From positions 21,218,481 through 21,282,480 of the forward strand of contig NC_091220.1 in NCBI RefSeq assembly GCF_040958095.1: a DNA stretch of 64,000 nucleotides. The letters run 5' to 3'. This DNA is from Procambarus clarkii (Eukaryota; Arthropoda; Malacostraca; Decapoda; Cambaridae). A program made the position numbers and the translations under genes. Under the pieces are notes generated by a model. It was not told where the DNA came from, made no database searches, and worked only from the letters and a program-made list of their open reading frames with translations. This document shows, one piece after another, positions 1-39,043 of this stretch (position 1 is the first letter of the stretch; every line of letters begins with the position of its first letter).

Positions 1-148
1 AATAAGGACGTCGAGAATCTGGCCATGCACCCCCATCCCCCTTCCCCTACCTCCACGTTTTAGTCTCACTATATTTTATGGAAAGATAATAATAACACAA
101 ATGAGATTATAATAGAGATAGTAATTATTGTATACCTGGGATGGAAGG

Positions 149-156
149 TATATAAA
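149..156 (+). promoter_or_regulatory. TATA-box candidate upstream of the first viral ORF
   Basis: The sequence TATATAAA lies about 135 bases before the ATG at 292, and a pyrimidine-rich TCAT-type start region follows about 30 bases later. The spacing fits an arthropod RNA polymerase II promoter. AT-rich DNA produces such motifs by chance, so this is only a candidate. Confidence 0.25.
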
Positions 157-291
157 CAGGCAAATTATGAGGGTTTATAGACCAGTTCATCTGTTCCTGT
201 AATCACAGTAAGTACTGTTCCTGAGTGTAGTCGTATACCAAAAACCAATTTATTTACCATACCATTTGATTTTTTATTAAATAAAAAAATA

Positions 292-1071
292 ATGGGAGAT
301 GTTATTACTGATTCACAAGTTAAAATTTTAGTTGGTAAATATTTTATTGATATATTAAATTATTCAATTAATCTTTATAATTATAATATAAAACATATTT
401 ATTTGCCAATGTTTGATATGTTAGATAGTGAATTTAATAATATTATATCAGTTATGTTTGACACATATATAGATATATGTCAAAATATTGGGTTTTTAAT
501 AATAAATGGAAAATGGGATCATTACCGATGTGAATTTATTCTTGATTTTATTCGAAGACAATTCAGTTATTATTTATACAAACTCCTAAAAAGAATTCAT
601 ATTATCAAATTATACATTATTCTCTTAGAAAATACGTTACGATATCAAGGATGGGCTCTTATGGAATCTATTTGGATTATACAAGGAAAAATACCTTATT
701 CTCTAATTAGAAAACCTATATTGAATGAAAGATGTATTAAACCCATTCTTCTGTCCCATACCGATATATATGACCTAAAAGATAATTTAAGTAATGTATA
801 TAATCGATCACCTACTGTAAAATATGTCAATGAAGTAACAAGAATTGTTATATATAATTTGTATAATTTACTTATGAAAAAATTTAAATGTGTAAATTGG
901 TTAGAGACTATTCGTCTCTGTTCTCTCCCCAAACAAAATCTTAAAAGATTAAACTGCCTTCCTAAAACAAAATCTGAAAACAATTTAGAATGTTTAGGGG
1001 ATATTCTTCGAACTATTGATCTTCATATATATAAAGATAGGGAAGTCTATAAATATAAGAAACATCGCTGA
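292..1071 (+). CDS. Hypothetical viral protein, 259 aa
   Basis: This is an uninterrupted AT-rich ORF starting at ATG and ending at TGA. The protein is rich in Ile, Tyr, Asn and Leu and has a basic C-terminus. I see no signal peptide, clear membrane segment or recognisable catalytic motif. It contains few cysteines and no repeats, which suggests a folded cytoplasmic or virion protein. It is the first of a run of plus-strand genes (292, 1196, 1585) separated by very short spacers, as in compact large-DNA-virus genomes. I do not recognise the family. The antisense ORF at 696-983 is treated as a shadow because this longer frame looks more like protein. Confidence 0.55.
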   Translation: MGDVITDSQVKILVGKYFIDILNYSINLYNYNIKHIYLPMFDMLDSEFNNIISVMFDTYIDICQNIGFLIINGKWDHYRCEFILDFIRRQFSYYLYKLLKRIHIIKLYIILLENTLRYQGWALMESIWIIQGKIPYSLIRKPILNERCIKPILLSHTDIYDLKDNLSNVYNRSPTVKYVNEVTRIVIYNLYNLLMKKFKCVNWLETIRLCSLPKQNLKRLNCLPKTKSENNLECLGDILRTIDLHIYKDREVYKYKKHR

Positions 1072-1195
1072 TTTATGTATGTATGTGTTGTATGGTGTGG
1101 AAATAATCTAAATCATATTTTTTTCTTTTGTCTACAGGATGTTTAAGTAAGAATAGACTTATTGATTGGCTTCCATCATCATCATCATTATCATC

Positions 1196-1588
1196 ATGAT
1201 GTTGCTGTTAGAAGATTTCATTTGGCAACCACTTTCATATGAAATTCAACTGTATTTAGATGATGTTTATAGTACACACATATTTAACCTGTGGACAGTT
1301 CTTTGTGGTCTTTTTTGGTATTATTCAGGGCTTAGAGAAGTGAATTTTGTTGCACTTCTTTTTTGCCTAATATGTGAAAGAAACAGAGAAATTTGCAGGA
1401 AGCAAGTTCAATATATGGTTATATATTTCTGCTTAGGAATTGGTATATGTACTATAGATGACACAAATGTCTTATTTCTAGTAGCATGTTTAATGATTAC
1501 TTATTTTATGTGGAAATTAATCTATGGAGTACATGGTTATTATATGGTTTTAAGTATGGGATTAATGTTACTCCTTTTTTTTATATGA
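1196..1588 (+). CDS. Hypothetical multi-pass membrane protein
   Basis: The open frame extends upstream through ATC codons to a TTG at 1166, but the first ATG is at 1196, so I start there (130 aa). The protein is very hydrophobic, with about three or four membrane segments, including a stretch around VNFVALLFCLIC and a C-terminal pair ending in LMLLLFF. Its stop overlaps the start of the next gene in an ATGA arrangement (ATG at 1585, TGA at 1586-1588), typical of compact viral genomes. There is no family match I can name. It may be a small envelope or membrane protein. Confidence 0.5.
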   Translation: MMLLLEDFIWQPLSYEIQLYLDDVYSTHIFNLWTVLCGLFWYYSGLREVNFVALLFCLICERNREICRKQVQYMVIYFCLGIGICTIDDTNVLFLVACLMITYFMWKLIYGVHGYYMVLSMGLMLLLFFI

Positions 1589-2538
1589 ACTGTTATCAGG
1601 TTATATTAACTTTATTTTATTTAATTATTCTATTTTACAGTACATATATCATAATAATCAAAGAATTTCCTGAAGGCAACCAAACAGATTTATTTCATAG
1701 TGCATTTTTACATTTAATAATGTTAATGATACACCCAAAGAAAAAGAAATCCTCTCTACCTAAGTTAGTAAATATTGAAGTTGATTTAGATCACATTCTG
1801 TTGCAAGATCTTTCAGTTGCACATGTTCCATTCTGGGGACATCATATAAATAATAAATTTTCACCTCAATTCCACCCTGAACTACCAATAGATGGTTATC
1901 CACGTTCATCTTTCTTTTCTGAAGATGAACGATTATCTTGGCAAGGTGAGATTGCTTATTTCCAGCCGAAATCTACTGTCTTAAATTGTGCATCAAAAAT
2001 AAGATTAGAACATCTTCAAAATATTTGTAATTATGCTAACGATTGTTATTGGCAAGAGCACATTTTTATTTTTGGAAAGCATATACTTACCAAGAAGGAA
2101 CTTGATGAAATAATGAGTTTTATAAACCCAAAGGACACTGTGGTGTCTATTTATGCTCGTGGTGGATGGGTTGAGAGTTTTTTGCTGAATCGAGGTGTGA
2201 GCATTATTCCAACAGAAAACACAGAAAGATTAGAGTATATAACTGCAGTTAAATGGTTACCAAACGGGTATATTAGGCATATAGTTAAAGAAACTTGTAT
2301 TAATAAAGAATATTCAAATGCCAATATACTTATAATCAATGAACCAATTGGGAATTTTTATATGACTATCGTTAGTATACTTAAAAATTTCAAAGGACGA
2401 CTAGTGATAATGTTTGGTTCCAACTTTCCTATGGTTATTAAAAGTGTTTTAAATGAAAAATACATTCATGTACAAACATCTAGTGTGCCCATTTTTATTA
2501 GGTCTACTGTTCATTTTTATATGAGAATAGACATATGA
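1585..2538 (+). CDS. Membrane-anchored protein with a possible degenerate methyltransferase-like fold
   Basis: The frame is open from 1486, but the ATG at 1585 overlaps the preceding stop, so I choose it (317 aa). The N-terminus carries one hydrophobic segment (about residues 5-24), followed by a soluble domain. In the C-terminal half a segment reading VVSIYARGGWVESFLL is followed by a beta-strand-like stretch, ILIINEPIGNFYMTIV, and then GRLVIMFG. That order resembles a Rossmann methyltransferase: a glycine-containing cofactor loop, then an acidic or proline 'xxPxG' loop, then a strand ending in IG/FG. The canonical glycine-rich motif is weak, so the enzyme may be inactive or the match spurious. 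The methyltransferase idea is inference only. Confidence 0.5.
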   Translation: MNCYQVILTLFYLIILFYSTYIIIIKEFPEGNQTDLFHSAFLHLIMLMIHPKKKKSSLPKLVNIEVDLDHILLQDLSVAHVPFWGHHINNKFSPQFHPELPIDGYPRSSFFSEDERLSWQGEIAYFQPKSTVLNCASKIRLEHLQNICNYANDCYWQEHIFIFGKHILTKKELDEIMSFINPKDTVVSIYARGGWVESFLLNRGVSIIPTENTERLEYITAVKWLPNGYIRHIVKETCINKEYSNANILIINEPIGNFYMTIVSILKNFKGRLVIMFGSNFPMVIKSVLNEKYIHVQTSSVPIFIRSTVHFYMRIDI

Positions 2539-2761
2539 TTATTGGAGTTATTATTGTGTAGAAATATATAATGAGAATTGATGACATTATTAATAGTTTT
2601 GATTTTTTAAATTAGGCACCCCCAAAAAATTCCTGGCTTGTACTAATGTGAGGTTTAATTTAAGGTAAATAAGTTAATAAAGGATGATTCTGACTTTAAT
2701 TATATACAGTTATAATTACCCTCAACATCTCAATGGTAATAATGATTTAAGTAAATAAAAC
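2539..2761. other. Intergenic AT-rich DNA
   Basis: No coding frame of note lies between the stop at 2538 and the tandem repeat. The stretch is AT-rich with a few short A and T runs. I see no RNA gene. Confidence 0.4.
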
Positions 2762-3017
2762 CAGTGACAAGTCACAGTAAGTCAGGAAGAACAAGCACAG
2801 CCAGTGACAAGTCAGTCAGGCAGAACAAGTACAGCCAGTGACAAGTAAGTCAGGCAGAACAAGCACAGCCGGTGACAAGTCAGTCAGGCAGAACAAGCAC
2901 AGCCAGTGACAAGTCAGTCAGGCAGAACAAGCACAGCCAGTGACAAGTCAGTCAGGCAGAACAAGCACAGCCAGTGACAAGTCAGTCAGGCAGAACAAGC
3001 ACAGCCAGTGACAAGTC
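2762..3017. repeat. 34-bp tandem repeat, about 7.5 copies
   Basis: A unit built around CAGTGACAAGTCAGTCAGGC, followed by AGAACAAGCACAGC, is repeated head to tail with one or two changes per copy. The first copies are more diverged than the last. It is more GC-rich than the viral genes around it and has no open frame across it. Repeats of this size between viral genes can act as homologous-region type origins or enhancers, but nothing here proves that role. Confidence 0.85.
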
Positions 3018-3186
3018 TGGGCTAAGTTTTTATAATTGCTGTTATACAAAGCTTAAAAGAACAAGAGGTCATAAAGTGTTCGTGATGATTAAAATTTTAT
3101 TAGAATAGTTGTTTTTTCAAGGATATTTTCATCAATATATATCAAAGGTTAGAAGAGCTTTAATTAAAAATTAGGTAACTGTTACT

Positions 3187-3423
3187 TTAAGCACTGTAAT
3201 CTGAATGAAGTTCATCTTGTGGGTGAGCTGATAGATAATTTATTACCAAAGTTTTCTTAAGACCTCTATCCTTAACAACTTTCCAAGTGTTTTTTTTAAA
3301 GCTGGTCTCCTCATTTCTTTTCGCCTGATGCTCTTTCAACTGCTGTACTTCGTCCCGTAGGTAATTTAATTCTGTCCTCAGAGCTTCAACTAAAACCAAT
3401 AGTTCAATCATTAAAACATCCAT
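3187..3423 (-). CDS. Small coiled-coil protein, hypothetical
   Basis: The ORF encodes 78 residues from ATG. The first half has a leucine heptad pattern (IELLVLVEALRTELNYL, then EVQQLKEH) consistent with a short coiled coil. The second half is basic. It could be a small viral protein, or the remnant of a LINE ORF1, which often has such a coiled coil before a basic region. It lies in the least gene-dense part of the viral block, next to the 34-bp repeat. Confidence 0.3.
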   Translation of the reverse strand: MDVLMIELLVLVEALRTELNYLRDEVQQLKEHQAKRNEETSFKKNTWKVVKDRGLKKTLVINYLSAHPQDELHSDYSA

Positions 3424-3810: not shown

Positions 3811-3842
3811 TTAACAACTATTTTTCTTTTTTTTTCTTTTTT

Positions 3843-3877
<35 letters not shown>

Positions 3878-3878
3878 A

Positions 3879-3924
<46 letters not shown>

Positions 3925-5466
3925 GGGCAAAGTCAATGGGGTTGGAGGTTCTTCAGATAATATTGGGAATGATTGTTTTATAGTTTGTATAACCAAATAT
4001 TTTATTCGCTTTGCAGAAAGTTCTTCCTCCTTTTTCTTTTTCTCTTCCTTCTTCTTCTTCTTTTCTTCCTTCTTTTTTTTCTTTTCTTCCTTCTTTTTCT
4101 TTTTCCTTTCTTCCTTTTTCCGCTTCCTTGTTATTTTCTCATCTTGGTTTGAAAGAGATAATAAACTCACTTCCCTTGTTATTTTCTCATCTTGGTTTGA
4201 AAGAGATAATAAACCCAAAGTGGATGATGAATTTCCAGATGTGGATCCTGCTCCTGAGATAGATGGTGACACTGTTGGTGGCAATGAATGTACATGCTTT
4301 AAATTTCCATCAGCATGTATCTGAGGTACATTGTAGCTTGTATTTGTATTTGAAAGCTGTTGATCTTTAGATACTAATAATTGTTGTTGTTGTGGTTGAT
4401 TAACATATACATCTTCATTCCAATCTGAACTTGAAATTGTATTTAGAGATAAACCCAAAGTGGGTAATGGATTTCCTGCTCCTGAGGTAGATGGTGACAC
4501 TGTTGGATTAAGGAATGTCAATGAATGTTCATGATATAAATTTGGAGGTGCATTGTAATAGGTATTTGAAAACTGTTGATCTTGTTGTTGTTGTTGTTGA
4601 TTAACATATGCATCTTCATTCAAACCTGAACTTAATATTGTATTTTCAGGAAACGACACCATTAGTTGTTGATAATCATTATTAATTGATTCACCTGTTT
4701 TACTACAATATTTATCAATTATATAAGTCAGATCTGTTTCTTTTTCTTCTTCTTCTTCTTCAATTTGTATGTTAGGTTGATGATAATTACACTTCAAATT
4801 GGCTGCTGGTAAATTGGTGGTTTCTGATATTAGTTGATAATTTGAGCTTGAAGTAGATGGCAAATAAATGTTGTTATTTTTTTCTCCTCCTCTTGTGGTG
4901 TTAGTTTCTGAGGGAAAGAGGGCATCAATGAAATCAGGAATTTGATCCAAAAAATCTTCTTCTCTATGTTGTTGCTGTTGTTGTTGTTGTTGTTGTTGTT
5001 GCTGTTGTTGTTGTTGTTGTTGTTGTTGTTGCTGTTGTTGTTGCTGTTGTTGTTGTTGCTGTTGTTGTTGTTGTTGTTGTTGAACATGATGAACTCCATT
5101 TTCCTGAGTTTTGTTTGCAATTCTTTTAAATGTTGTTATATTTTTCTTCACCTTATTTTCCAAAACTGATTCTTCATCATCAGATTCCAAAGCAGCAGGA
5201 GCAGCAACAGCAACAGCAGTGGCAACGATGGTGGTCAGGGTAGTGGTGGTGGTGGTGGCACTAGTGGTGGTGGTAGTAGTGGTAGTGGTAGTAGTAGTAG
5301 TAGTAGTAGTAGTAGAAGTAGCAGATTTATCTAAATCTTTGTTTGTCAATGACTCTAATTCTTCCTTATTGCCTGTATCATGCTCATTATTATCTTCTTT
5401 ACTGTTATCACTATCACCATCATCATCATTATTATTACTATTACTACTACTACTACCACTGCCACC

Positions 5467-5522
<56 letters not shown>

Positions 5523-6789
5523 CACTGCCACCACCATCACTACTACTGTTACTGCTACTGTTACTGCTGCCTCTACTGCTGCTGCTGCTGCTGCTGCTTC
5601 TTATGCTGCTGCTGCCTATTCTTATGCTGCTGCTGTCTCTTCTGATGCTGATTCTTCTGCTGCTGCTGCTGCCTCTTATGATGCTGATGTCTTTTCTGTT
5701 GCCACTTCTACTTCTGCTGTTTCTTCTTTTTCTATCATCTTCATTATCCTTATCATCATGTAATAATAATGATGTAGTTGCTGATTCAGTAATGTTAGTT
5801 GTAGTTTTAGTGACTGAGGGAAGAATATTTCCATTTCCTTCGTTTTTGAATAAATTCCTGATTTGTATACCTAAAAAGTAGTCTTCTAAAACTTCCCGTT
5901 TATCTTGATGTATAAAACCAGATGAAATTATTTTTTGTAGGATAATTCTAGATAATCTATTCTTATCTATATCACAATTCTTATACTGAAATTGGTTCTT
6001 AATTATGTAATGTAAACTTTCCAGTATTATTTTAAAAGATTCTATCAAATTCATATTCTTTGCAGAACATTTGGGTTTCACTTCATTCTTATGTAAGTCG
6101 ATTATCTTCAGTATATTATTTCTATACTTTTGAAGTGGGAATTTTACTTCACAGCAGTTACATTCCATAATTGGAATGATTTCATTCTTCAATCTAAACC
6201 CTTCATGTATGAAAGTTTGTTTATTTCTTGATATTTGAGTCTTTAAATTTTCATACTTGGTTTTAAATAAAAAGGCTGACTCTTCAAAAGATTTATCATC
6301 ATCATCGATATCATCATCATCATCATCATCATGCTTATCCTTTTTTTTCATTGCCTTTATTATATATAATATTTCATTAATTTTATCTAATGTAGTTGTA
6401 TATACTATAAATGGTGCTCTCTTACACTCATGATCTATTATTTTCTGGAATGATATAAATATGCCATTACATATTATGCAAATGTACCAACCATTGTTAT
6501 TATCCACGTAAGAAAATGTGGATAATTTTTCCAACTGATCATTAATTATCCATATTTTATATTTTTGTTTATCTTCCAATTCTGGATAGGATGGGGAGAT
6601 AATTTTTTGTATTCTCTTATGGTATTCTTGAACATAAGTCAGTGTTCTTATACTAGAGTACAGATGAGTCCCCTTTAATATAAAATATTTAGGGAGACCA
6701 TCATAGAGTTGTTCTTCTGATGTAAAGGTGGTTGGTGGCACACTGGGGAGTGGATCTCGACGATTCACGTTGTTCTTAATTGGAGCCAT
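3811..6789 (-). CDS. Large low-complexity protein with two zinc-finger-like clusters
   Basis: The frame is open from a TTG at 6798, but the first ATG is at 6789, giving 992 aa. About the first 320 residues look like a normal folded domain. They contain two possible metal sites: a CIIC pair followed by DHEC, and a CNCC cluster followed about 20 residues later by an H-x7-C pair. The second resembles a degraded BIR-type spacing but lacks the other BIR residues. The remainder is almost entirely low complexity: poly-Ser, poly-Thr (about 18), poly-Gln (close to 50, encoded at 4966-5084), Asp runs, KKE repeats and a C-terminal Ser/Lys tail. The tracts come from trinucleotide microsatellites. The function is unknown. 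A regulatory or nuclear protein with disordered tails is plausible but inferred. Confidence 0.6.
4966..5084. repeat. TTG/CTG trinucleotide microsatellite (poly-Gln tract on the minus strand)
   Basis: About 40 TTG triplets are mixed with a few CTG triplets. On the minus strand they read CAA/CAG and give a poly-glutamine run inside the large protein. The CAA/CAG mixing is typical of slippage-derived coding repeats. Nearby tracts at 3846-3922 (GAT), 5237-5310 (GTG/GTA) and 5430-5670 (ACT/GCT) are of the same kind. Confidence 0.9.
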
Positions 6790-7014
6790 TGAAAACAATA
6801 AAGCAGAAGAATCCCACAGGCTGGAGAATCATGCATGTGTATACAACTGGCATTGAGACATCTTGTAGTTTTTAGGTTGTGCAGTGTGCTCACAGAGTAA
6901 ATCCGAATCCTAAAACAAAGAAAAAAGTGTCACTTTTTATTTTATTCGTTTAACATAAAGATAAAATAATAGTATATTATGCTTGTTTAACTTTTTTTAA
7001 AAAATATATAAACG
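6790..7014. promoter_or_regulatory. Divergent intergenic region between the large minus-strand gene and the Fic gene
   Basis: These bases separate two divergently transcribed genes, so both promoters should lie here. A TATATAAA sits at 7003-7010, only a few bases before the Fic ATG at 7015, implying either a very short leader or a viral late-type promoter. No other motif stands out. Confidence 0.3.
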
Positions 7015-7896
7015 ATGTTTTTTTCATATGAATTAAGCCTAAACTTAAAAAATAAAGTATCTGAAATTAATAAATTTAAACAAATATATTTAGGTCTAGA
7101 TAATAATAAAAAAGTTCAAGGGTTAGTTGTAAAAACCATGGAATATGGTTTTTTAACTAATTTAATGAAACATGAAAATATTGGGATTTGGCCACACAAC
7201 CAGAAGAAAACTCTAATCACTAATTGGAAAGTTAGAGAGGTTAGAAACTTACTAAGAGCAATAGAATATTTAAATTTCATTAGAGGTCATAAAAAGATTA
7301 AGGAAGAGATAGTAGGAGATAAGGATATGTACACTTTATTAGGTTTAATTGATCTTGAAACTTGTGTTTTAAATTTACACAAAATATTAATGAGAGGATT
7401 GTTATCACCCGAAAAATGTGGTTATGTAAGTACCAATATACGCTGTACAAAGATTAGTAATAACACAAGTGTCAAGGGTTTGTATGTATATCCACATATC
7501 CATTCAATTCAGGATGGAGAAAATCGTATTTTGGCTATTTTGGACAATTACAATTCTACATTGACCCAAAAAATATTCACAGTTTTAGGGCCAGAGGAAG
7601 AATTTGAATGGATTTTTAAATTAATTTCATGGTTTATCCTAGAAATGCTTACTCTCCATCCTTTTTCAGATGGAAATGGTCGTTTGACACGTCTTTTAGT
7701 CAATTATATATTGTCAACATTAATGCCATTTCCAACATCTATCATGGGGAATTTAGAATGGGCTATTATCCATGATCGAAAACTAAATACAAAAAAACAA
7801 CGCCCACCTCTTAACATACTCAAATTAGTAATTGAAAGTGTCTTGTTCAATTGGCGAATGTATTTTTATCTGTTATCTGTGGTCAGAAAAAAATAA
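7015..7896 (+). CDS. Fic-domain protein (probable AMP-transferase)
   Basis: This is a complete 293-aa ORF. Residues 215-226 read HPFSDGNGRLTR, the canonical Fic active-site motif HxFx(D/E)GNGRxxR, with the catalytic His, the Mg-binding acidic residue and the phosphate-binding Gly-Asn-Gly-Arg loop all intact. Upstream, residues about 135-175 have the glycine-rich flap and the 'yxxP' segment typical of Fic folds. Fic enzymes transfer AMP (less often another phosphate-containing group) to hydroxyl side chains of target proteins. I do not see an N-terminal inhibitory (S/T)xxxE(G/N) helix. It ends in TAATG, sharing one base with the next gene, so the two may be co-transcribed. Fic proteins are uncommon in animal DNA viruses. 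A host-signalling role is inference. Confidence 0.85.
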   Translation: MFFSYELSLNLKNKVSEINKFKQIYLGLDNNKKVQGLVVKTMEYGFLTNLMKHENIGIWPHNQKKTLITNWKVREVRNLLRAIEYLNFIRGHKKIKEEIVGDKDMYTLLGLIDLETCVLNLHKILMRGLLSPEKCGYVSTNIRCTKISNNTSVKGLYVYPHIHSIQDGENRILAILDNYNSTLTQKIFTVLGPEEEFEWIFKLISWFILEMLTLHPFSDGNGRLTRLLVNYILSTLMPFPTSIMGNLEWAIIHDRKLNTKKQRPPLNILKLVIESVLFNWRMYFYLLSVVRKK

Positions 7897-8318
7897 TGAA
7901 ACTTTATATTATATTTATATGTTTAATTCTTTATTCAATAATATTAAATTACATTTATAAGAAAAATATGAGTAATAATCCAAAGATAGACTCTAATTTA
8001 ATAATAATGTCACACCCTCCATATGAAAAGATTACAAGAAAGATGGATTGTACTATTAACAATATAGCATGCCAGAAAAATGAAGACTGTCAAACATTTT
8101 GCTCTTCTTCTTTAGGAGTTACTTGCATTAATAGTGTTTGTAATTATGACACTGATCATAAATGTTTAAATGGAGGATTTCCTATTAATTATGTTGGGGA
8201 AACTAATTTAATAACCACCATATGTGCTTGTATGGATAATGGACACTATATCGGTGAGCAATGTCAATACCAAAATTCCTTTCGACCAACGTCTCACAAA
8301 AGCTTCCCTATTAGCTAA
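7896..8318 (+). CDS. Cysteine-rich type II membrane protein, PIF-3-like
   Basis: The frame is open from 7851, but the ATG at 7896 overlaps the Fic stop and places a hydrophobic anchor at residues 3-20, so I start there (140 aa). After the anchor and a short linker come about eleven cysteines: MDC, IAC, EDC, TFC, VTC, SVC, HKC, then a NGG followed by a C-A-C pair and a final EQC. An N-terminal anchor with this cysteine order matches per os infectivity factor 3 of baculovirus/nudivirus/nimavirus-type viruses, where PIF-3 is part of the envelope entry complex. The last third also fits an EGF-like module, the main alternative. No other PIF gene is visible in the window. The family call is by pattern, not by search. 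Confidence 0.5.
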   Translation: MKLYIIFICLILYSIILNYIYKKNMSNNPKIDSNLIIMSHPPYEKITRKMDCTINNIACQKNEDCQTFCSSSLGVTCINSVCNYDTDHKCLNGGFPINYVGETNLITTICACMDNGHYIGEQCQYQNSFRPTSHKSFPIS

Positions 8319-8393: not shown

Positions 8394-10774
8394 ATGTTGC
8401 TCTTTAAAATGAATGATCGATATTATACTTATCCACTTATTCAAAATTATGATCCGTTAAAACGAACTTATCAAGACTCACATATCAATCCCAATACTGG
8501 GACTTTTAATAAAATAACTCGTGATCTTCAAACTATAAGTTGTACTTCATCAAGAAAAAATAAGACGAGTTTATATGGTTTTGGATCACTAACTGATATG
8601 TGTGGGAAAAGAGAAATTGATTTGATATTATTAACAAATGGAACAGTTCATCATTTATATCGTAGATTTTGGGAGACAAACACTATAAGTGGTTCCCATG
8701 TCATACGTCTACCTAGTTTAGATTATATACATTTTATCTTGGATGTTGATTTAAAAAAAATGTGTACTCTTGAATCATTTCGTTTATCGACAGCTGAGTA
8801 CCTAGAATATCTAACACTTAAACAATCAGGGTCATCCTTACAATTAACAACATCCATTGTTAATGGACAGATCTATTATAATACAAATTATGTCATATAT
8901 GAACTTGTTTCTCATATTGTTTATTATTTAGGTCTAGACTGGCTACCAATTTATATTTTAGGTAAATCACAAACGTTTACTCAAGGATTTCATCTTGAAA
9001 TACCCCACCTAACTCTTTCCTATTATGATTTTGCCCTAATGTCCAATTCATGTAAAGAACTCTTACCTACCCTCGTAGATATTACTACCAATTATAGTAT
9101 TTTTGGCTCTCAAAAAATTCAACTGCAAACACCTTTAAACGAAATGGACTGCACCTATTTACCATATGCGGTTTTCCACAAAAATAATATTTACGATATG
9201 TCAAACTCACCACCCTCATATATTTTATCAAGTATGGGTGAAGTTTTTGACTTATTTAATATCTGTAAATATCATGAACCTTCATCCATTAGAGGATTCC
9301 CAACTATTATCGGATTGGATGATGATACATATGCTCTGGATGTTTTTCAGAAAAATGTTCAAACATTTATGCAAAACAAAGAAAATATTGATGACGCCGA
9401 AAATTATGTTACTATATATGAAAATTATGATAATTCTAGGGAGAGAGATGAAGAAAAAATACCAGATATAACAGAAGAAGATTTTTTCATGTTTTCCAAT
9501 GTTAACAATATTATCAATAAAATTATAGTGGGTTTATTTTTTGTTACACTTAGTAAGGAATATAAACTTTCTATATATAAATCTCTTCATTTTCAAGAGG
9601 AACAACAAGAAGAGAATAACCAACTCTTAATTATACTTGAAAAATATCCAAATAGTTTTATACATATTAACGAAATTCCGCATTACCTGATTCTTCTTAC
9701 AAATGACAATGACGCTGAGGCAAACTTTGACTACGATAAAATACAAATGACAGCAAATCGTATTGAAAAAGTGTTTACAGTTCAACCTTTAAGGCAAACA
9801 TCTATTCGCGGAACAGTTGCCAGTAGCAATATCAGTCGCGATACCAATTCTTTCTTGAAACGAATTCAGCCATTTACCATTGAACATATAACCCGTTTAT
9901 GTTTGCAGAGTAAACAACATCTTCACACTGTCTTGTATCTTTTAGCATTGTTATATGTTAAAAAGATCCGTCAAAAGTCCCTGGGAATGACATTTCCTGA
10001 CTACAATTATTTTATAGCCAAAATAATTAGAGATTTAAATTTTAATCACTTAGATACTGGACCACTTTATGAAATCATCTACCTTCTTAACCGATATCAG
10101 GAACACCAGCAAGTAAAAGAAGAATTAGAAGATTGGATAATTTTGTGTCTTCTAAATCTTCTAATTGTTAGTGATGTGGTATCAATGAAAGAAGCTTTTG
10201 ATCTAGTAGAAAAAATTGATTCTCAAAGATTGGATTTTGTCATGAATATAAATGTGGAAGAGTTTGACAGTGACACTTATCGGGTAGTACCATCAGCTAA
10301 TAGTAATTCACGTCCTACTAAAATTCCTCGGATTATAATAGCTTTTTCTTTCCTACAGAATTTTGGTATAACGGAATATAACAATTTTTTAGCTATATAT
10401 AAACCTATTATATGTGATAAGAATTCGCGCCAGATTAATGTTTGGGATAATACTACTAAGAAGTGGTCTGTAGCTAATAATCACATAAATTCTTCTTTAC
10501 TAGCACCAGACCTAACTTACATTGCACGTCAAATTATTTTAATTGATAGCATACTACAACAACAACAACAACCACAATTACTGGAAAATGAAATGTTTCT
10601 TTCACTTACCTTACCACCAACACCACTACAATCCAACTGCAACTTATTACCACCTCCTCCTCCGTTATCACCTTCTCCATCAATAACCTCATCAATTTCT
10701 TCATCGAATTCAAACTCAAACCTTCCTTCTTCTTCAGCCAAAGGTAGAGTCAAAAAAAAACTACTGATTCTACA

Positions 10775-10822
<48 letters not shown>

Positions 10823-10859
10823 TACAAGAAACGAAGTCTTATTCAGAATAGTCTTCTAA
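8394..10859 (+). CDS. D5-like primase-helicase, N-terminal primase part (frame broken at 3' end)
   Basis: The 821-aa ORF carries an archaeo-eukaryotic primase domain. The metal-binding motif appears as LDVDLKK near residue 116, preceded by a beta strand, and an sxH-type motif as GFHLEIPH near residue 199. A long alpha-helical region follows. The last hundred residues become Pro/Ser-rich and then run into an isoleucine tract encoded by an ATA repeat (about 10777-10820), the usual sign of having left the true frame. The break probably lies in the nine-A run near 10752. The next two ORFs supply the rest. It would prime and unwind viral DNA at replication forks. Whether the shifts are real mutations or assembly errors cannot be told here. 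Confidence 0.75.
10777..10820. repeat. (AAT)n microsatellite inside the primase-helicase gene
   Basis: About 14 AAT triplets lie just after a nine-A run. In one frame they give poly-Ile, in the frame that continues into the next ORF poly-Asn. The tract is where the reading frame changes. Confidence 0.9.
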
Positions 10860-10885
10860 ATTCTATAAAGAGTTTTTATGCAAAC

Positions 10886-11557
10886 ATGAAAATCTTGGAT
10901 ATACCTCGATATTTTATAGCTTCTTCTCAATGTTATATCATCAGCGGCAGTAGCAGTAGTGAGATGAACCAAATGTTTTATATCCTACCACTTCCCCTGT
11001 ACAAATCATCAAATAATACAAATTCTGATACAAGACCAACTATTTATGATTGGAGTGAAGTATTGAAACTATTAGATCACATACCAAAATGTACCTTTTT
11101 TATGCAGCAATGTAATCCAATATTAAAAGATATTCTACATTACGAAAGCAAAAAAAAGAAATATTATAAGAAGTTGACAGTTGAAGAGAAACATAAAATT
11201 CTCTTACTTAGTCGTGAACAATATCATATAAACTTTATAGATCGATTTTGGAATGATGGTATGAATAGATTAGCTCAACTTGTCAAATATTATGTGCTAA
11301 AACATATGGTTACTTCTTTAGAATCACTAAACCGAGTTTCAGAAAATATTAATATAGAAAATAAATATCAAGATCTTCTGAATAGACTCATTGAAGAATG
11401 CCGTCATGGAATAAAAAATCGTAAAATTCCAATCAAAGAAAGTATTTACCATCTAGATGCTATTTTAAAAGAAAATCTAAAGGTAAATGGACGGTTTATA
11501 CGAAAAGATGATGTTGGTACACCAGTGAAACCTAATTGTAATTGTCAATTTTGTTAA
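10886..11557 (+). CDS. D5-like primase-helicase, middle segment (second frame)
   Basis: This 223-aa ORF is in the frame after the primase part. The frame is open upstream through the AAT repeat, so the ATG at 10886 is unlikely to be a real start. It is helical and charged, consistent with the D5_N linker that precedes the SF3 helicase in D5-type proteins. It ends in a short cysteine-containing peptide (NCNCQFC), and the helicase reads on from a third frame overlapping at 11542. I treat it as part of one broken gene, not a separate protein. Confidence 0.6.
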   Translation: MKILDIPRYFIASSQCYIISGSSSSEMNQMFYILPLPLYKSSNNTNSDTRPTIYDWSEVLKLLDHIPKCTFFMQQCNPILKDILHYESKKKKYYKKLTVEEKHKILLLSREQYHINFIDRFWNDGMNRLAQLVKYYVLKHMVTSLESLNRVSENINIENKYQDLLNRLIEECRHGIKNRKIPIKESIYHLDAILKENLKVNGRFIRKDDVGTPVKPNCNCQFC

Positions 11558-12582
11558 CACTAGCACAGATCTTTTGCTATGATGCAACTACTATGATTTA
11601 TTTTTTTTCACTAATAGTAAAAGCATGCCATCGACAAAATGACAAGAAGATAACTTTGGGTATTGGAGATTCAAATTCAGGAAAAACTGCTTTATTAAAT
11701 ACTCTTACTCTAACTCTTGGTGATTTGACAGGTATTCTCTCAGTACATACAGCTCATAAGGGTCTCCAAGAACGGACCCATGATTTAGGAAGAGGTGGAA
11801 AAATGGTTAGAATGTGGTACATGGATGAACTGAGTACGACTAAAACCCTTAATTCTCTGTTTTTAAAGCAATTGAGCGGTCATGCCCCAATGTGGATTCG
11901 TCAAAACTATATGGATGGGGATACATATAATTTAGCAACACCTATTTTTTTGTTTGGCAACAATTGCCCAACTTTCAGCGAATATGACTCAGCCTTGATG
12001 CAACGACTTCGTTTCATTTCATTCCGTGCGCGGTTTGATTCTGAAGTGCCTACGTCATTTCAATATTCAATTTTTCCCCAATTTCATCTCATGACTGATG
12101 ATCGAAAGAAAAAGCGTCTGACTGAAGGAATGATGGCACTCTTTATTCATGCTAACTGTCATGATAAACTCAATTCGCCCTGGTTTGTATCAATGAACCA
12201 GACTGTTAACTTTCTCACACTCCCAATTAACATTATGGAGGCAACTGAGTTATATTCACCAGAACGTGGAATTGTAGCCCAAATAATGGAAGAGTGCCAT
12301 CTGGTAGAGAAACCATATAGTGGGTTTATTACCCTACATCGTCTATCAGTTCTTTTGCGTAGTTTCCCCAAGGCCCTTAAAAATATTTCATTGGCAGATG
12401 CTCATCTTTTTTTTGAAAACGTATACCAGGTATCATGGCTACCAATAAACAGCAATCGTTTGGCAAATATTCCACAATCCCATTTACCAATTAATGAACC
12501 AACTATTAGTATCATAGAGGGAATTTGTGAACAAAATTGTGAAATAAATGATAGAAATCTTGCTAGATTAACTCAAAATTAA
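11542..12582 (+). CDS. D5-like primase-helicase, SF3 helicase part (third frame)
   Basis: The 346-aa ORF contains a superfamily 3 helicase. Walker A is GDSNSGKT at residues 42-49, Walker B is MWYMDEL with the acidic pair at 95-96, and motif C is FLFGN at 136-140, ending in the sensor Asn. A QRLRFISF segment follows, like the arginine-finger region of D5/poxvirus-type helicases. The family forms hexamers that unwind DNA ahead of the viral polymerase and is normally fused to an N-terminal primase, which is what lies upstream in other frames. The start of the ORF is arbitrary, since it begins inside the frame-change zone. About 1400 codons span the three pieces, somewhat longer than many relatives. 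Confidence 0.8.
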   Translation: MSILLTLAQIFCYDATTMIYFFSLIVKACHRQNDKKITLGIGDSNSGKTALLNTLTLTLGDLTGILSVHTAHKGLQERTHDLGRGGKMVRMWYMDELSTTKTLNSLFLKQLSGHAPMWIRQNYMDGDTYNLATPIFLFGNNCPTFSEYDSALMQRLRFISFRARFDSEVPTSFQYSIFPQFHLMTDDRKKKRLTEGMMALFIHANCHDKLNSPWFVSMNQTVNFLTLPINIMEATELYSPERGIVAQIMEECHLVEKPYSGFITLHRLSVLLRSFPKALKNISLADAHLFFENVYQVSWLPINSNRLANIPQSHLPINEPTISIIEGICEQNCEINDRNLARLTQN

Positions 12583-12667
12583 ATTAAACAGGTATTAAAA
12601 AAAAAAAAGGATATATACTCTATATTTATATGTGTGTGTGAAATGAAAATATACTGAAAAACATATA

Positions 12668-12886: not shown

Positions 12887-12928
12887 TTTTTTTTTATAAA
12901 ATATATAAAAATAAATAGTATAAAATAA

Positions 12929-14248
12929 ATGTCCAGTTCAACGAGGAGTCAATTAATTGTTTTTAATTTCCAAAATCGTAATGGAAAAGAAAAATATTTC
13001 CAAATAAGAATTTCAAAAACATATTCAACTGGTAATTTTAATAAAAAGTTTTTCCCACTGTTAACAGTAAAACAAGAAATACCACTAAGATTGTTAATTC
13101 ATTACTATATTTCACTTAATATATTTACAGGAGAGGGATTAGGATCAGTAAAAAAAGGGGGAATGAATTATGGATTAATTAGGAGATTCAAAAGAGCCAA
13201 AGTAAGAGAAGATAGAAACAGTCCAACAGAAGATGATGAAATTCATAGAAATGTCATACAAGATAATATTGAAGATGAAGTAGACGAGATCAGTGATCCT
13301 GGTCCATCTAATGGAAATAAATCTTCTTATGGTCTACTCCAGAAGGGTGGAATAAATGCCCCCTCTCATAGAAATCTCAATTCTTCTTCTCGTCCAAGGG
13401 GTATTCAAAACAATGGTACTTATATTTTCCCTCAATCGGAATCCAATAAAAATAACTTTATAGTTAGAAAAATATATCAAATCGCTGGATTGGGCTTTCC
13501 AGGATTCAAACTGAAATTTAATACTCGTTTCTTTGACATGAAAACTTTAAAACAATATTTGTCTAAATACATTGAACAAATACCTAAAAATGAAGGTTTT
13601 TCGTTAGAATATAAATACATAATATTATATATTAGAATGTTAACAAATTTATGGACATTTTTAATGGTAAAACAAGACCGGAAGGATCAAAAGTTAATTT
13701 ATAAATATCTTATTAATGAAATTGGTAAGTTAAGAAAACATATTCAATTTAACAATAAAAAGTATATAGATAATAATAGCTTATACATGGTAAATTTTAT
13801 TGAAAAAGCAAACATGTATAGTAGTGAATTATTTTACAAATTTGTTAGAAAATTGACGGACACTGTAATTTGTGATCATGATATCAAAGAGATCAATTCT
13901 AGAGATGCCACTAAATTACACTTCAAATTACTTACTGTGTTTGATTCACTAACTGCTGCTACACATCAACAGGCAGTAGTAGGTTTACAGAAATATATTT
14001 TGTACAGTGCATTAGACTATGATAATGCATCTTCCCAAAAAATGAATACTAATAATATTAAGTATAATTTCAGATATGCTAAGATCAATAGAGAGACTTG
14101 TGAAATTAATGACACTGATATCCATAGAAATATGGGTGATGATGATGATGAAGATTCTGATAATAATGTTGATGTTGATGGTAGTGGGGATACCCAAGGT
14201 CCCTTAGTAATTTTAAAATGTCGAAAAATTAGAAGGAAAGATAAATAA
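12929..14248 (+). CDS. Hypothetical viral protein, 439 aa
   Basis: This complete ORF follows a strongly A/T leader containing TATAAAA and ATATATAAAAA. The first 80 residues look beta-rich, then a disordered acidic/Ser region with two similar KGG-M/I-N segments (GSVKKGGMNYGLI and YGLLQKGGINAPS) spans roughly 70-170. A helical domain covers about residues 190-360, and the tail is Asp-rich before a basic end (RKIRRKDK). It has no membrane segment or enzyme motif I can see. A structural or DNA-associated role is possible but unsupported. Confidence 0.55.
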   Translation: MSSSTRSQLIVFNFQNRNGKEKYFQIRISKTYSTGNFNKKFFPLLTVKQEIPLRLLIHYYISLNIFTGEGLGSVKKGGMNYGLIRRFKRAKVREDRNSPTEDDEIHRNVIQDNIEDEVDEISDPGPSNGNKSSYGLLQKGGINAPSHRNLNSSSRPRGIQNNGTYIFPQSESNKNNFIVRKIYQIAGLGFPGFKLKFNTRFFDMKTLKQYLSKYIEQIPKNEGFSLEYKYIILYIRMLTNLWTFLMVKQDRKDQKLIYKYLINEIGKLRKHIQFNNKKYIDNNSLYMVNFIEKANMYSSELFYKFVRKLTDTVICDHDIKEINSRDATKLHFKLLTVFDSLTAATHQQAVVGLQKYILYSALDYDNASSQKMNTNNIKYNFRYAKINRETCEINDTDIHRNMGDDDDEDSDNNVDVDGSGDTQGPLVILKCRKIRRKDK

Positions 14249-14511: not shown

Positions 14512-15183
14512 ATGGCTATCAATACAGATCAGATAACAATTAAAATTTTAGATTTATCACCTGACATGATACAATTTAAAATAGAAAATATAAATTTAGC
14601 TCCAGTAAATGGATTGCGGCGGATTTTTATAGCTGAGACTCCTACTATAGCCATTGATTGGGTTCAAATTAAAAAAAATACAACTATATTAAGTGATGAG
14701 TTCATTATTCATCGTCTAGGTCTAATTCCAATACCTTCAGATGAATTCATTAATAAATTAAAGATTCCATGGAAATGTCAATGTATTAACTTTTGTACGA
14801 AATGTGCAGTAGAATTTATTTTGGATGTTAAATGTCGTGAAGACAAACAATACCTCATAACAACATCTGATATAATACCATCTTTTCACAAAGAAATCCC
14901 AATTCCTTTGGTTAAACTTAATAATGGACAAGAATTATGCTTAAAAGCATATGCTATCAAGGGGATTGGCAAAAACCACGCCAAATGGAATCCGACAATT
15001 AATATAGATTTTGATTGCTGTAACAACACTTCTTCTTATTTTCTGGAAGATTGTAATAAACGAAAACAATTTTATTTCAATATTGAAAGTTCAGGTGCAT
15101 TAAAGCCTGAAAATATTATGCTAATAGGCCTAGAAACTTTAAAAAACAAATTAACCTTCTTATTGGATAAATTTAAATGTTAA
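14512..15183 (+). CDS. RNA polymerase subunit, RPB3/alpha-like
   Basis: This complete 223-aa ORF has all the hallmarks of the RPB3/AC40/RpoA dimerisation subunit. NGLRRIFIAETPT (33-45) is the conserved helix, HRLGLIP (67-73) is the signature after 'DEfi', a zinc-loop C89-x-C91-x3-C95-x2-C98 follows, and GKNHAKW (153-159) is diagnostic for eukaryotic-type RPB3. It is shorter than cellular RPB3 (around 270), has no introns and lies in AT-rich compact DNA, so it is more likely viral than the host gene. In large DNA viruses such a subunit nucleates a virus-encoded polymerase for cytoplasmic transcription. The largest-subunit fragment 2 kb away supports this. Confidence 0.85.
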   Translation: MAINTDQITIKILDLSPDMIQFKIENINLAPVNGLRRIFIAETPTIAIDWVQIKKNTTILSDEFIIHRLGLIPIPSDEFINKLKIPWKCQCINFCTKCAVEFILDVKCREDKQYLITTSDIIPSFHKEIPIPLVKLNNGQELCLKAYAIKGIGKNHAKWNPTINIDFDCCNNTSSYFLEDCNKRKQFYFNIESSGALKPENIMLIGLETLKNKLTFLLDKFKC

Positions 15184-15210
15184 TACTGTAAATAGAATAC
15201 CAAACCGGGG

Positions 15211-15246
15211 TGTGTGTGTGTGTGTGTGTGTGCAAAAAAAAAAAAA
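15211..15246. repeat. (TG)11 microsatellite followed by an A run
   Basis: Eleven TG dinucleotides are followed by C and a 13-base A run, between the convergent RPB3-like and mucin-like genes. The A run may serve as a transcription end signal for either strand. Confidence 0.85.
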
Positions 15247-15312
15247 TGGAATAATAAATGATCAAATATTTATTTTGCTTTTAATTATTCAATAAATGCA
15301 TTAAGACAGAAA

Positions 15313-16502
15313 TTATTGAGCAAGAAATTGATTAGAAAAATTTAGTTTTATTAAATCATATTTCGTTTTAACCTGATTAGAGTCGTTTAATTCTATATCT
15401 TCATTTAATGTATAAGATGAGAAGTTATTATAAATCCAAATGAAAAGTACTAAACTTATCAAAAAAATAGGAATTATAATAATAATAATAAGAACAGTCG
15501 AATTGATATTGATTGTTTCTTGTGTGTCATTTGGTATAGTTGAGTTGGTGGTTTCTTCTTTGGGAGTTTCTTCTGTTGTTTCTAAAGTTGACTGGCTTTC
15601 TTCGGTTGTTGGTGGGGTGGTTGCCTTAATAATTATTATTTCTTCCGTTGAGACAACTGTATATGTTTTCATCGCTGTATCATTTTCCCATGGTGGTGGT
15701 GTTGTGGCCATGGCCGGTCTTTCTGGTGATGTTGTTGCCTGGCTTTCTTGAGGGGTAGATGCTGTCGTCTCCTCATGGGTGTCATTGGTTGTGGTTGTTG
15801 TTGTTGTTGTTGTCGAGGGAGGAGTGGTTTCTGTTTCATCATCATAGTTGTAGTAATTTTCTGATGATGTTGTTGCCTGGCTTTCTTGAGGGGTAGATGC
15901 TGTCGTCTCCTCATGGGTGTCATTGGTTGTGGTTGTTGTTGTTGTTGTTGTTGTTGTCGAGGGAGGAGTGGTTTCTGTTTCATCATCATAGTTGTAGTAA
16001 TTTTCTGATGATGTTGTTGCCTGGCTTTCTTGAGGGGTAGATGCTGTCGTCTCCTCATGGGTGTCATTGGTTGTTGTTGTTGTTGTTGTTGTTGTTGTCG
16101 AGGGAGGAGTGGTTTCTGTTTCATCATCATAGTTGTAGTAATTTTCTGATGATGTTGTTGCCTGGCTTTCTTGAGGGGTAGATGCTGTCGTCTCCTCATG
16201 GGTGTCATTGGTTGTGGTTGTTGTTGTTGTTGTTGTTGTTGTCGAGGGAGGAGTGGTTTCTGTTTCATCATCATAGTTGTAGTAATTTTCTGATGATGTT
16301 GTTGCCTGGCTTTCTTGAGGGGTAGATGCTGTCGTCTTCTCATGGGTGTCATTGGTTGTGGTTGTTGTTGTTGTTGTTGTTGTCGAGGGAGGAGTGGTTT
16401 CTGTTTCATCATCATAGTTGTAGTAATTTTCTGATGATGTTGTTGCCTGGCTTTCTTGAGGGGTAGATGCTGTTGTCTCCTCATGGGTGTCATTGGTTGT
16501 GG

Positions 16503-16536
<34 letters not shown>

Positions 16537-16815
16537 CGAGGGAGGAGTGGTTTCTGTTTCATCATCATAGTTGTAGTAATTTTCTGATGATGTTGTTGCC
16601 TGGCTTTCTTGAGGGGTAGATGCTGTCATCTCCTCATGGGTGTCATTGGCTGTGGTTGTTGTTGTTGTTGTTGTCGAGGGAGGAGTGGTTTCTGTTTCAT
16701 CATCATAGTTATAGTAATTTTCTGATGATGTTGTTGCCTGGCTTTCTTGAGGGGTAGATGCTGTCGTCTCCTCATGGGTGTCATTGGTTGTGGTTGTTGT
16801 TGTTGTTGTGGGCAC
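15313..16815 (-). CDS. Mucin-like type I membrane glycoprotein with long tandem repeats (N-terminus missing)
   Basis: The frame encodes 500 aa. Most is about eight copies of a roughly 47-residue repeat of the form PQESQATTSSENYYNYDDE, TETTPPS, a variable poly-Thr run, then NDTHEETTAS. The repeats differ mainly in Thr number. They are rich in Thr, Ser and Pro, as in O-glycosylated mucin stalks, and contain NDT sequons. Near the C-terminus a hydrophobic stretch (about 430-450, VLIIIIIIPIFLISLVLF) is followed by a 45-residue cytoplasmic tail, so the protein would sit in a membrane with the repeats outside. No signal peptide is present because the frame starts at a GTG beside a GC-rich insert; the real start is lost. 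Similar repeats continue at 16950-17203. Confidence 0.65.
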
Positions 16816-17203
16816 GCCGCGCCGCTCGAGAACACGCCCACGCAGCCTAGCGTCTACCGAAGGGACTGAGATACGCCGGTCCGAGCTCGGTTAAGAACAG
16901 TTGGCCGGACAGAGCGGACGTCCCCGACCTTCACCTCGCCCAGTCTCCTGGCTTTCTTGAGGGGTAGATGCTGTCGTCTCCTCATGGGTGTCGTTGGTTG
17001 TTGTGGTTATGGTTGTTGTTGTTGTTGTTGTTGTTGTCGAGGGAGGAGTAGTTCCTGTTTCCTCGTAGTCCTGGTTTTCTTGAGAGGTAGATGCTGTCGT
17101 CTCTTCATGGGTGTTGTTGGTTGTTGTGGTTATGGTTGTTGTTGGTGTTGTCGAGGGAGGAGTAGTTCCTGTTGCCTCGTAGTCCTGGTTTTCTTGAAAG
17201 TAT
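15738..17203. repeat. About 141-bp coding tandem repeat, nine to ten copies
   Basis: The string CCTGGCTTTCTTGAGGGG recurs near 15738, 15878, 16020, 16160, 16305, 16447, 16600, 16738 and 16949, with a diverged copy near 17070. Copies within 15738-16800 are nearly identical except for the GTT run length. The copies beyond 16949 are shorter and more diverged. This is the DNA of the mucin-like repeats. Confidence 0.9.
16809..16949. other. GC-rich insert inside the mucin repeat array
   Basis: About 140 bases of distinctly GC-rich sequence interrupt the AT/GTT-rich repeats and break the mucin frame. It starts after a GTT run and ends at a repeat-unit edge (CTCCTGGCTTTC). It contains no repeat of its own and no recognisable gene. 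It could be foreign DNA captured in the array, a transposon fragment or an assembly artefact. Confidence 0.7.
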
Positions 17204-17212
17204 TATTATTAC

Positions 17213-18500
17213 TTACACTAGGAAATATTTTTTCAACAAAATCAACATAGGATGGTGTAGGTTGACGAATAAACTGTAGTAAATCATTATAAGATATCGA
17301 AAAAACTTTTGAGTTTTAGTTATTTTATGACAAATCTTTCTAAGATGAATGAATATATCATATGCTCTCGAGGAAGATTCAGTTATAGCTAAACGATACA
17401 GAGCTCCATGAATTTCATTTCTATTAAGACCATATAGGTAATATAACATTAAAATTTCATCATGATCAAAAGCTAAACGTAGACTACCTGGTAAGACAAA
17501 ATTTGTACGAGGATGGAAAAGAATAACGGCTTCAGCTTCAGAAGCCACATTATGACTTACTGGAATAACTTGCATGGCATCACCATCGAAGTCGGCATGA
17601 TTACCATGCACAATGCTAGTGGGGATAGCCATGACTGGATAGATCCAAAAAGCTTTCACCCGATGTAAGGTAAAATTTCTATCATCAAGTGTAGGATAAC
17701 GGTGGGCAAGAACATAACGTGGACAATCTAGTCGTCTCCATACACTAATAGGAAGAATACATTCATCTGGTTCAAGTTCATTACAGGGGGTAATAATGAC
17801 GCGGGCTGAACCAATGTATCGTTTATTGTGTCCATGTTGACGTATAGAAGAAAATTTACCACTTTTCATTCGACTCAACACTGATCCATAACTCGTTTTA
17901 ACTTTACTCATATTTACACTAGGATCTGAAATAAGTTTTTTGTAAAACGGCAATGATCGTTGATGATTCATAAGGAAGGCTAAAGGTGGAATTAACCGGT
18001 GAATTCCATTCGATAACTTTATATGCACACTATAATTAAGTTCATTAGGATCATTTCTTAATTCAAATTGTGATTGGGTTGTAAGTCGCTCAAATAATAT
18101 TCTTGGGTTTCTAAAGAGGAATTTATCATGAGTGTTATTATTATCTGCTTTTGATGAGCTATTTCCTTGCCAAATATGATTAAGGTAAATTCTAAATTCA
18201 GCATATGAATGTTCATATTTTGTTTGGCACGCTTTACATTGCCATCCACCTGTTGTTGGACGAAAAATACGGTTTCTCACTTTAAGATAACGAAAAATAG
18301 CATTAGAAAGACCCTGGACTGAATTTGCATTTGGGAATACACTTGATAATAATTCTTCATGGGGTTTGAAAATTAAATGACATTGAGAGCACTTTATAAA
18401 ACGAGGGTAACTATCATTTAAGTTTCTAGTTAAAACTTTATAATTACTCATGTAACGTTTAAATTTATTTCGATCAATACAAATTACACAATTTACAAAG
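17213..18500 (-). CDS. RNA polymerase largest subunit (RPB1-like), partial and frameshifted
   Basis: The frame runs from the N gap (no stop between 18500 and the first ATG at 18451) to a stop at 17213, so the true start is probably lost in the gap. Cysteine pairs near the start (CVIC, KCSQC, WQCKAC) look like the N-terminal zinc region. SGKFSSIRQHGHNKR followed by SARVIITPC fits the 'lid/rudder' segment. HADFDGDAM is the absolutely conserved metal-binding loop NADFDGD of all multisubunit polymerases, here with H for N in the flanking position. The last residues read better in another frame after an A run near 17303 (plus strand), so a one-base shift is likely. The C-terminal two thirds of a normal RPB1 is absent: the sequence runs straight into mucin repeats near 17203. 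Confidence 0.8.
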
Positions 18501-38390: not shown

Positions 38391-38404
38391 TTTCTAAACC
38401 CACA

Positions 38405-39026: not shown

Positions 39027-39043
39027 AGTAAGTATATCATTTA

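What the first reader, a model, noticed from the sequence alone, without database searches (positions are those of the whole stretch)
1..18500. Viral block mixing a Nucleocytoviricota-type transcription/replication set with a PIF-3-like entry protein
Seen: RPB3-like subunit (NGLRR, GKNHAKW), largest-subunit fragment (ADFDGD), D5-type primase plus SF3 helicase, and a cysteine-rich membrane protein with PIF-3-like layout. Known: RPB1/RPB3 plus D5 occur together in Nucleocytoviricota, while PIF proteins define baculo-, nudi-, nima- and hytrosa-type viruses, which lack RPB3. Inference: the block may be a divergent crustacean virus (perhaps near the AT-rich Mininucleoviridae or an undescribed lineage) that shares an oral entry factor with PIF-bearing viruses.
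Basis: partly seen in the sequence, partly recalled or inferred. Interest (0 to 1): 0.9.

Follow-up and report, generated by a model that had tools for sequence, protein, structure and literature searches.

The report
High-copy endogenous large DNA virus
The first 18.5 kb of this window is part of a large DNA virus that has settled in the chromosomes of its animal host, probably a crayfish, in about a hundred mostly near-identical copies; it combines its own replication and transcription genes with a possible oral-entry gene and a gene for an RNA polymerase part taken from an animal.

Summary
RPB3 (14512-15183) is an animal Pol II RPB3 (208.8 bits to the best PDB chain): a captured host gene, not the Nucleocytoviricota type. 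The RPB1 piece is viral-like (best E 1e-6 against IMG/VR). The primase-helicase matches no family and is assigned by motifs. The 7896-8318 protein is weakly PIF-3-like: just under Pfam's cut-off, a 79%-identical relative just over it. The block is not a free virus. A helicase search of the host assembly gives 118 rows, a lower bound, 114 of them 97-100% identical; 37 list an uninterrupted frame of 1390-1407 codons. The ten best-scoring copies differ by 0-0.75% over 4 kb. Other pieces add DNA polymerase B, RPB2-like and capping-like frames, IAPs, a recombinase and a probable Erv1 oxidase. Best reading: a recently amplified endogenous large DNA virus of an undescribed arthropod lineage, living like endogenous nimaviruses but with its own RNA polymerase. 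Membership in Naldaviricetes is open: PIF-0 and PIF-1 were not found, by searches of unproven sensitivity.

The parts
292..1071 (+). ORF of 259 codons, unknown function
   Evidence: no Pfam family; found in the C85 copy with 7 substitutions in 780 bases
1196..2538 (+). two overlapping ORFs (1196-1588, 1486-2538), hydrophobic N-terminal part; one 447-codon frame in the C85 copy
   Evidence: L079:7628-8971(-); no Pfam family for 1486-2535 or for L079:7628-8971
3811..6798 (-). ORF of 995 codons, largely low-complexity (Ser/Thr/Gln runs)
   Evidence: a similar frame begins at L079:3248
7015..7896 (+). Fic/DOC protein, with the HPFSDGNGRLTR motif
   Evidence: Pfam Fic 1e-9; 4 substitutions of 882 against the C85 copy
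7896..8318 (+). PIF-3-like protein: N-terminal helix, cysteine-rich remainder
   Evidence: Pfam PIF3 E 0.0011 below cut-off, relative P0002 9e-5 above cut-off; helix 2-26 with block pLDDT 81 and 83 for residues 1-20, rest of the model poor
8394..12582 (+). primase-helicase gene, split over three frames in this copy (8394-10859, 10886-11557, 11542-12582); one frame of about 1400 codons in 37 of 118 rows
   Evidence: motifs read by eye; no significant family match
12929..14248 (+). ORF of 439 codons, unknown, open in the four copies compared
   Evidence: 3-8 substitutions of 1320 between copies
14512..15183 (+). RPB3, animal Pol II type, single uninterrupted frame
   Evidence: Pfam 1.9e-14; PDB 9mu7_C 208.8 bits; open in three of three copies compared
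15313..16815 (-). Thr/Pro-rich repetitive, mucin-like protein with a C-terminal hydrophobic stretch
   Evidence: read by eye; similar frames in L082
17213..18499 (-). RPB1-like largest-subunit fragment (ADFDGD); its upstream end is lost in the gap
   Evidence: Pfam Rpb1_2 5.4e-6; 56 IMG/VR loci, best E 1e-6
18501..19000 (.). 500-N scaffold gap; the LINE-like sequence beyond it is not proven adjacent
   Evidence: LINE-like by eye

Best explanation
The block is part of one copy of a large double-stranded DNA virus (probably more than 100 kb) that lives as a high-copy endogenous element in its host's chromosomes. Shown: its helicase recurs at 118 rows of the assembly, the ten best-scoring copies differ by at most 0.75%, a LINE lies between its genes on a gap-free contig, and it or its other copies encode a family B DNA polymerase, RPB1, an animal-type RPB3, IAPs, Fic and an integrase-type recombinase. 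Weaker assignments: RPB2-like, capping-like, Erv1-like, PIF-3-like, SF3 primase-helicase. Inferred: virions enter gut cells with PIF-type proteins; the genome is copied by its own polymerase; late genes are transcribed by its own RNA polymerase, in which the captured RPB3 supplies the assembly subunit (RPB3 pairs with RPB11 in Pol II; recalled); the recombinase inserts genomes into the host and gives the copy number. It most likely belongs to an undescribed lineage at or near Naldaviricetes.
For: 118 rows in the host assembly (117 of 198 candidates scored, so a lower bound), 114 at 97-100% identity; 37 with an uninterrupted frame of 1390-1407 codons (counted by me). The ten best-scoring rows, 4 kb each: 45 pairs, 0-0.75%, median 0.52%. 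DNA polymerase B 9.2e-30 and exonuclease domain 3e-12 in a second C71 copy; its nearest protein, 70% identical, is filed under the microsporidian Astathelohania contejeani, the next at 29%. RPB1; RPB2 domain 6 at 3.8e-4, below cut-off; capping-like C-terminal domain 0.039, below cut-off, plus a KLDGNNG motif. BIR 3.2e-53 and Phage_integrase 3.1e-5, the latter below cut-off. Evr1_Alr 2e-4. PIF3. Transposons within copies: LINE with RVT_1 2.4e-34 at L057:138-2690 on the window's own gap-free contig; gag-pol-like frames between DNA polymerase and RPB1 at L083 (by eye). An edge of the C85 copy runs into a 12-bp minisatellite without a gap at L080:2669.
Against: No second PIF was found: PIF-0 (PF04583) and PIF-1 (PF05092) gave nothing in the whole assembly. 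The controls were silent too, and PIF3 itself gave nothing in the same kind of search, so that search misses weak members. RPB2-like, capping-like and integrase assignments are each below Pfam cut-offs. No capsid gene was recognised. Gene content comes from pieces of several copies, some behind scaffold gaps, not from one complete element. Order and ends of the element are unresolved. The ten copies measured are the best-scoring ones, so their divergence understates the spread; four rows are only 89-95% identical.
Confidence: 0.68

Rival explanations
1. A Nucleocytoviricota virus (near Mininucleoviridae or another Pimascovirales group) gone endogenous; the PIF-3 resemblance is a chance likeness of a cysteine-rich membrane protein.
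For: RPB1 piece aligns with IMG/VR contigs that look like giant viruses (kind of contig inferred); primase-helicase motifs; RPB2 domain 6; the PIF3 match covers 41 of 149 profile positions, and a Late nodulin model also matches weakly.
Against: No capsid, packaging ATPase or VLTF family listed for 98 frames; the relative P0002 passes the PIF3 cut-off; the DNA polymerase alignment finds only one IMG/VR contig, at 23%.
Confidence: 0.2
2. A known kind: an endogenous nimavirus, as described in many crustaceans, with a few extra genes.
For: Same life style: multi-copy (22-477 copies per haploid genome), IAP genes, tyrosine recombinases, insertion into repeats (PMC10871703, abstract and passages).
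Against: The lef RNA polymerase genes are absent from nimavirids (PMC10271883, passages), and 'RNA polymerase', 'RPB' and 'primase' do not occur in the main text of PMC10871703; here RPB1, an RPB2-like and a capping-like frame are present.
Confidence: 0.1
3. A free virus or contaminant whose contigs were wrongly scaffolded into the host assembly.
For: The 41-kb contig with the block has 500-N gaps at both ends (window 18501-19000 and L059:6901-7400), and RPB2-like frames are doubled across one gap.
Against: 118 rows on dozens of scaffolds, transposons within copies, and a gap-free edge into a minisatellite.
Confidence: 0.05

Closest known systems
Endogenous nimaviruses (Majanivirus and relatives; PMC10871703)
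   Same: Large DNA virus as multi-copy giant element in crustacean genomes; IAPs; tyrosine recombinase; association with repeats (here at one copy)
   Different: Nimavirids lack the lef-type RNA polymerase genes; this element has RPB1, an RPB2-like and a capping-like frame and a captured RPB3
Lefavirales (baculo-, nudi-, hytrosaviruses; PMC10271883)
   Same: PIF-like gene plus viral RNA polymerase genes, DNA polymerase, probable sulfhydryl oxidase; IAPs (recalled for baculoviruses)
   Different: RNA polymerase pieces hit the cellular RPB1/RPB2 Pfam models and no LEF model was listed; primase-helicase of SF3 type by motif; RPB3 from an animal; PIF-0 and PIF-1 not found
Mininucleoviridae (PMC6960288)
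   Same: Crustacean viruses with RPB1, RPB2, primase-helicase, family B DNA polymerase and Erv1
   Different: No capsid or poxvirus-type entry gene seen here; a PIF-3-like gene, high-copy endogenous state and probably larger extent

Membership tests
Naldaviricetes | pif-3 | tested here: inconclusive
   Window copy 19.5 bits, below cut-off 22.2; 79%-identical relative 23.1 bits, above; part of the profile only; no match in the whole-assembly search
Naldaviricetes | pif-0 (p74) and pif-1 | tested here: inconclusive
   No match in the assembly, controls silent; none listed for 98 frames
Naldaviricetes | pif-2 and pif-5 | tested here: inconclusive
   None listed for 98 frames; the whole-assembly search for pif-2 did not complete; pif-5 not searched there
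Naldaviricetes | DNA polymerase and p33-type sulfhydryl oxidase | tested here: inconclusive
   DNA_pol_B 9.2e-30; Evr1_Alr 2e-4, frame identified by motif; orthology to naldaviral genes not shown
Lefavirales | lef-4, lef-8, lef-9 homologues | tested here: inconclusive
   RPB1 and RPB2-like domains and a capping-like motif found; no LEF Pfam model listed
Nimaviridae | no lef-type RNA polymerase genes | tested here: not met
   RPB1 found in two copies; criterion from PMC10271883
Nimaviridae | WSSV-type core genes | not tested
   No nimaviral sequences in hand
[quoted passage not shown]
   No such Pfam family listed for 98 frames; the rest of the element was not read
Nucleocytoviricota | D5 primase-helicase | tested here: inconclusive
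   Motifs by eye; no significant Pfam match for the helicase or primase frames
Animal Pol II RPB3 | closer to metazoan RPB3 than to other RPB3/RPAC1/Rpo3; dimerisation domain and CxC...CxxC cysteines kept | tested here: met
   no tree was built and the host's own RPB3 was not reached

The most novel reading that the evidence does not exclude
This is an undescribed PIF-bearing virus lineage that kept Nucleocytoviricota-like replication and transcription genes, so it is a link between Naldaviricetes and Nucleocytoviricota, and it rebuilt its RNA polymerase with an RPB3 taken from its arthropod host, while colonising the germ line as a giant transposon.
Probability: 0.3. Interest if true: 0.92.

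Novelty: new variant of a known kind. Interest (0 to 1): 0.76.

Why it matters
Whether PIF-bearing arthropod viruses are an ancient branch of the realm that holds Nucleocytoviricota is open (PMC10271883, passages). A lineage with genes of both kinds, present in many near-identical copies, would make that question testable by phylogeny. It also suggests that endogenous large DNA viruses in crustaceans are not only nimaviruses, and shows a Pol II core subunit captured from an animal inside a viral element that has RNA polymerase genes of its own.

Tried and rejected
Single-sequence fold of the helicase: pLDDT 31, useless. Fold of the PIF-3-like protein from four sequences: pLDDT 48.5, only the N-terminal helix is good; no fold comparison could be run. 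PDB sequence searches: nothing useful for the PIF-3-like protein (best E 0.013, a protein named Mitsuba-1), nothing for helicase, capping-like and integrase proteins, RPB2 at only 0.038 for the RPB2-like frame. IMG/VR scans with helicase, PIF-3-like and DNA polymerase (single sequence) confirmed no relative. Telomere repeat (TAACC)n as insertion site: among the fetched pieces one run of 15 bases, in L087. The 12-bp minisatellite occurs in L080 and L081 only, one copy's flank, so an insertion-site rule is not claimed. One search aligned pieces in mixed orientation; its cross-orientation values (about 45%) are wrong and were replaced. Searches were scripts that failed. I found no report of this element in eight paper searches (no bioRxiv library and few subscription papers held).
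Full report
What is in the window. The window lies at 21.2 Mb on scaffold C71 of a 4.03-Gb assembly of 2308 contigs. Bases 1-18500 are AT-rich (GC 0.28-0.42 in 2-kb steps to 18000) and gene-dense. A 500-N gap at 18501-19000 separates them from LINE-like sequence, which recurs in the rest of the window (by eye), so adjacency across the gap is not proven. Among the ten frames scanned first, Pfam finds Fic (1e-9), RPB3 (1.9e-14), RPB1 domain 2 (5.4e-6) and, below cut-off, PIF3 (0.0011).

The two polymerase subunits have different origins. The 223-residue RPB3 scores 197-209 bits against animal Pol II RPB3 chains, 118-129 against fungal and plant ones, 75-84 against RPAC1 and 67-78 against archaeal chains (the organisms are recalled from the entry codes). 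It keeps the dimerisation domain and the CxC...CxxC cysteines. It is an uninterrupted frame in three of three copies compared. I read it as a captured animal gene; no tree was built and the host's own gene was not reached. The RPB1 piece is divergent: its best PDB hit is 4.9e-5, and 56 distinct IMG/VR loci encode relatives at 23-42% identity, best E 1e-6.

The PIF-3-like protein. It has an N-terminal helix and a cysteine-rich remainder. Four sequences were scored against Pfam PIF3 (cut-off 22.2 bits): window copy 19.5, C85 copy 19.8, P0001 20.0 and P0002 23.1. The match covers profile positions 2-42 of 149 (3-42 for P0002). A Late nodulin model matches all four more weakly. Only P0001 and P0002 turned up in the search of 5.8 billion proteins, which had 5 candidates. 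I take PIF-3 homology as likely, about two in three, not proven.

It is a high-copy endogenous element. The helicase part of the window, searched in the assembly, gives 118 rows on dozens of scaffolds; 117 of 198 candidates were scored, so this is a lower bound, and two adjacent rows on C32 look like one interrupted copy. Identity is 97-100% in 114 rows and 89-95% in four. By my count 37 of 118 rows list an uninterrupted frame of 1390-1407 codons without stops; the others list shorter frames, some with stops. In the window copy the gene is split over three frames. The ten best-scoring rows (4 kb each, window copy included) differ by 0-0.75%, median 0.52% over 45 pairs; being the best-scoring, they understate the spread. 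Differences between copies in five other genes are few and mostly not silent, as expected if copies drift after insertion.

Embedding in host DNA. The block sits on a 41-kb contig between two 500-N gaps, 22.6 kb of it upstream of the window. On that contig a LINE with reverse transcriptase (2.4e-34) lies between viral genes (L057:138-2690). The second C71 copy has gag-pol-like frames (L083:1564-6034, by eye) between its DNA polymerase and its RPB1. The C85 copy carries an inverted second set of the same genes with a transposase-like frame between them (L078:2857-4950, by eye). One edge of that copy enters a 12-bp minisatellite of more than 600 units without a gap; I saw this at one copy only.

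Neighbouring viral genes, from pieces of several copies, some behind scaffold gaps. DNA polymerase B (9.2e-30) at L082 and its exonuclease domain (3e-12) at L083, two adjacent pieces searched apart, and RPB1 again at L084 (9.4e-7). RPB2 domain 6 at L059 (3.8e-4) and a capping-like frame with a KLDGNNG motif at L058 (0.039), both below cut-offs. BIR/IAP (3.2e-53) and a phage-integrase-type recombinase (3.1e-5; 24.2 bits, cut-off 27.1). Of 98 frames scanned together (of 135 kept), one matches Evr1_Alr (2e-4) and one cytochrome c (1.6e-11); motif reading points to L084:2834-3781 and L066:9730-9999. No capsid family was listed.

Host and relatives. No tool names the host. The nearest DNA polymerase (70% identity) is filed under Astathelohania contejeani, a genus of crayfish-infecting microsporidia (PMC8951847, abstract start in the listing); I infer that this contig comes from the crayfish or its virus. 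A second relative is at 29%. So the lineage is wider than this species and probably crayfish-associated.

What it is. The life style is that of endogenous nimaviruses, reported at 22-477 copies, with IAP genes and tyrosine recombinases (PMC10871703, abstract and passages). The gene set is different: nimavirids lack the lef RNA polymerase genes (PMC10271883, passages). PIF-0 and PIF-1 were not found in the assembly; those searches have no positive control, and the same tool missed PIF3. I therefore file it as an undescribed lineage at or near Naldaviricetes, with Nucleocytoviricota as the main rival.

How it probably works. Entry by PIF-type proteins, replication by its own polymerase and primase-helicase, transcription by its own RNA polymerase completed with the captured RPB3, protection of the cell by IAPs, modification of a host target by Fic, and recombinase-driven insertion leading to many copies. 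Gene presence is shown as stated above; every functional step is inference.

Noticed in passing
L057:3275-4441: Uninterrupted S-adenosylmethionine synthetase gene (three domains, best 4.6e-62) beside the LINE in the viral stretch; captured gene or retrocopy.
   Followed up: partly
L066:9730-9999: Cytochrome c-like frame (1.6e-11, place by motif), past the scaffold gap upstream.
   Followed up: partly
L061:2-493, L057:4732-7269, L062:9432-10000: Apparent paralogous family resembling the Na,K-ATPase beta chain (6.9e-5, just below cut-off, for L061 only; others by eye).
   Followed up: partly
L057:7750-9702: F-box protein (7e-6) next to the block.
   Followed up: no
L059:3605-8419: The same RPB2-like frames occur on both sides of a 500-N gap, probably an assembly duplication.
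   Followed up: no
L080:2669-9996 and L081: Long 12-bp minisatellite ACCACAACCTGC with an orientation switch at L081 about 6220.
   Followed up: partly
window 38319-39044 and 58305-59661: Long tandem-repeat frames in the part beyond the gap.
   Followed up: no
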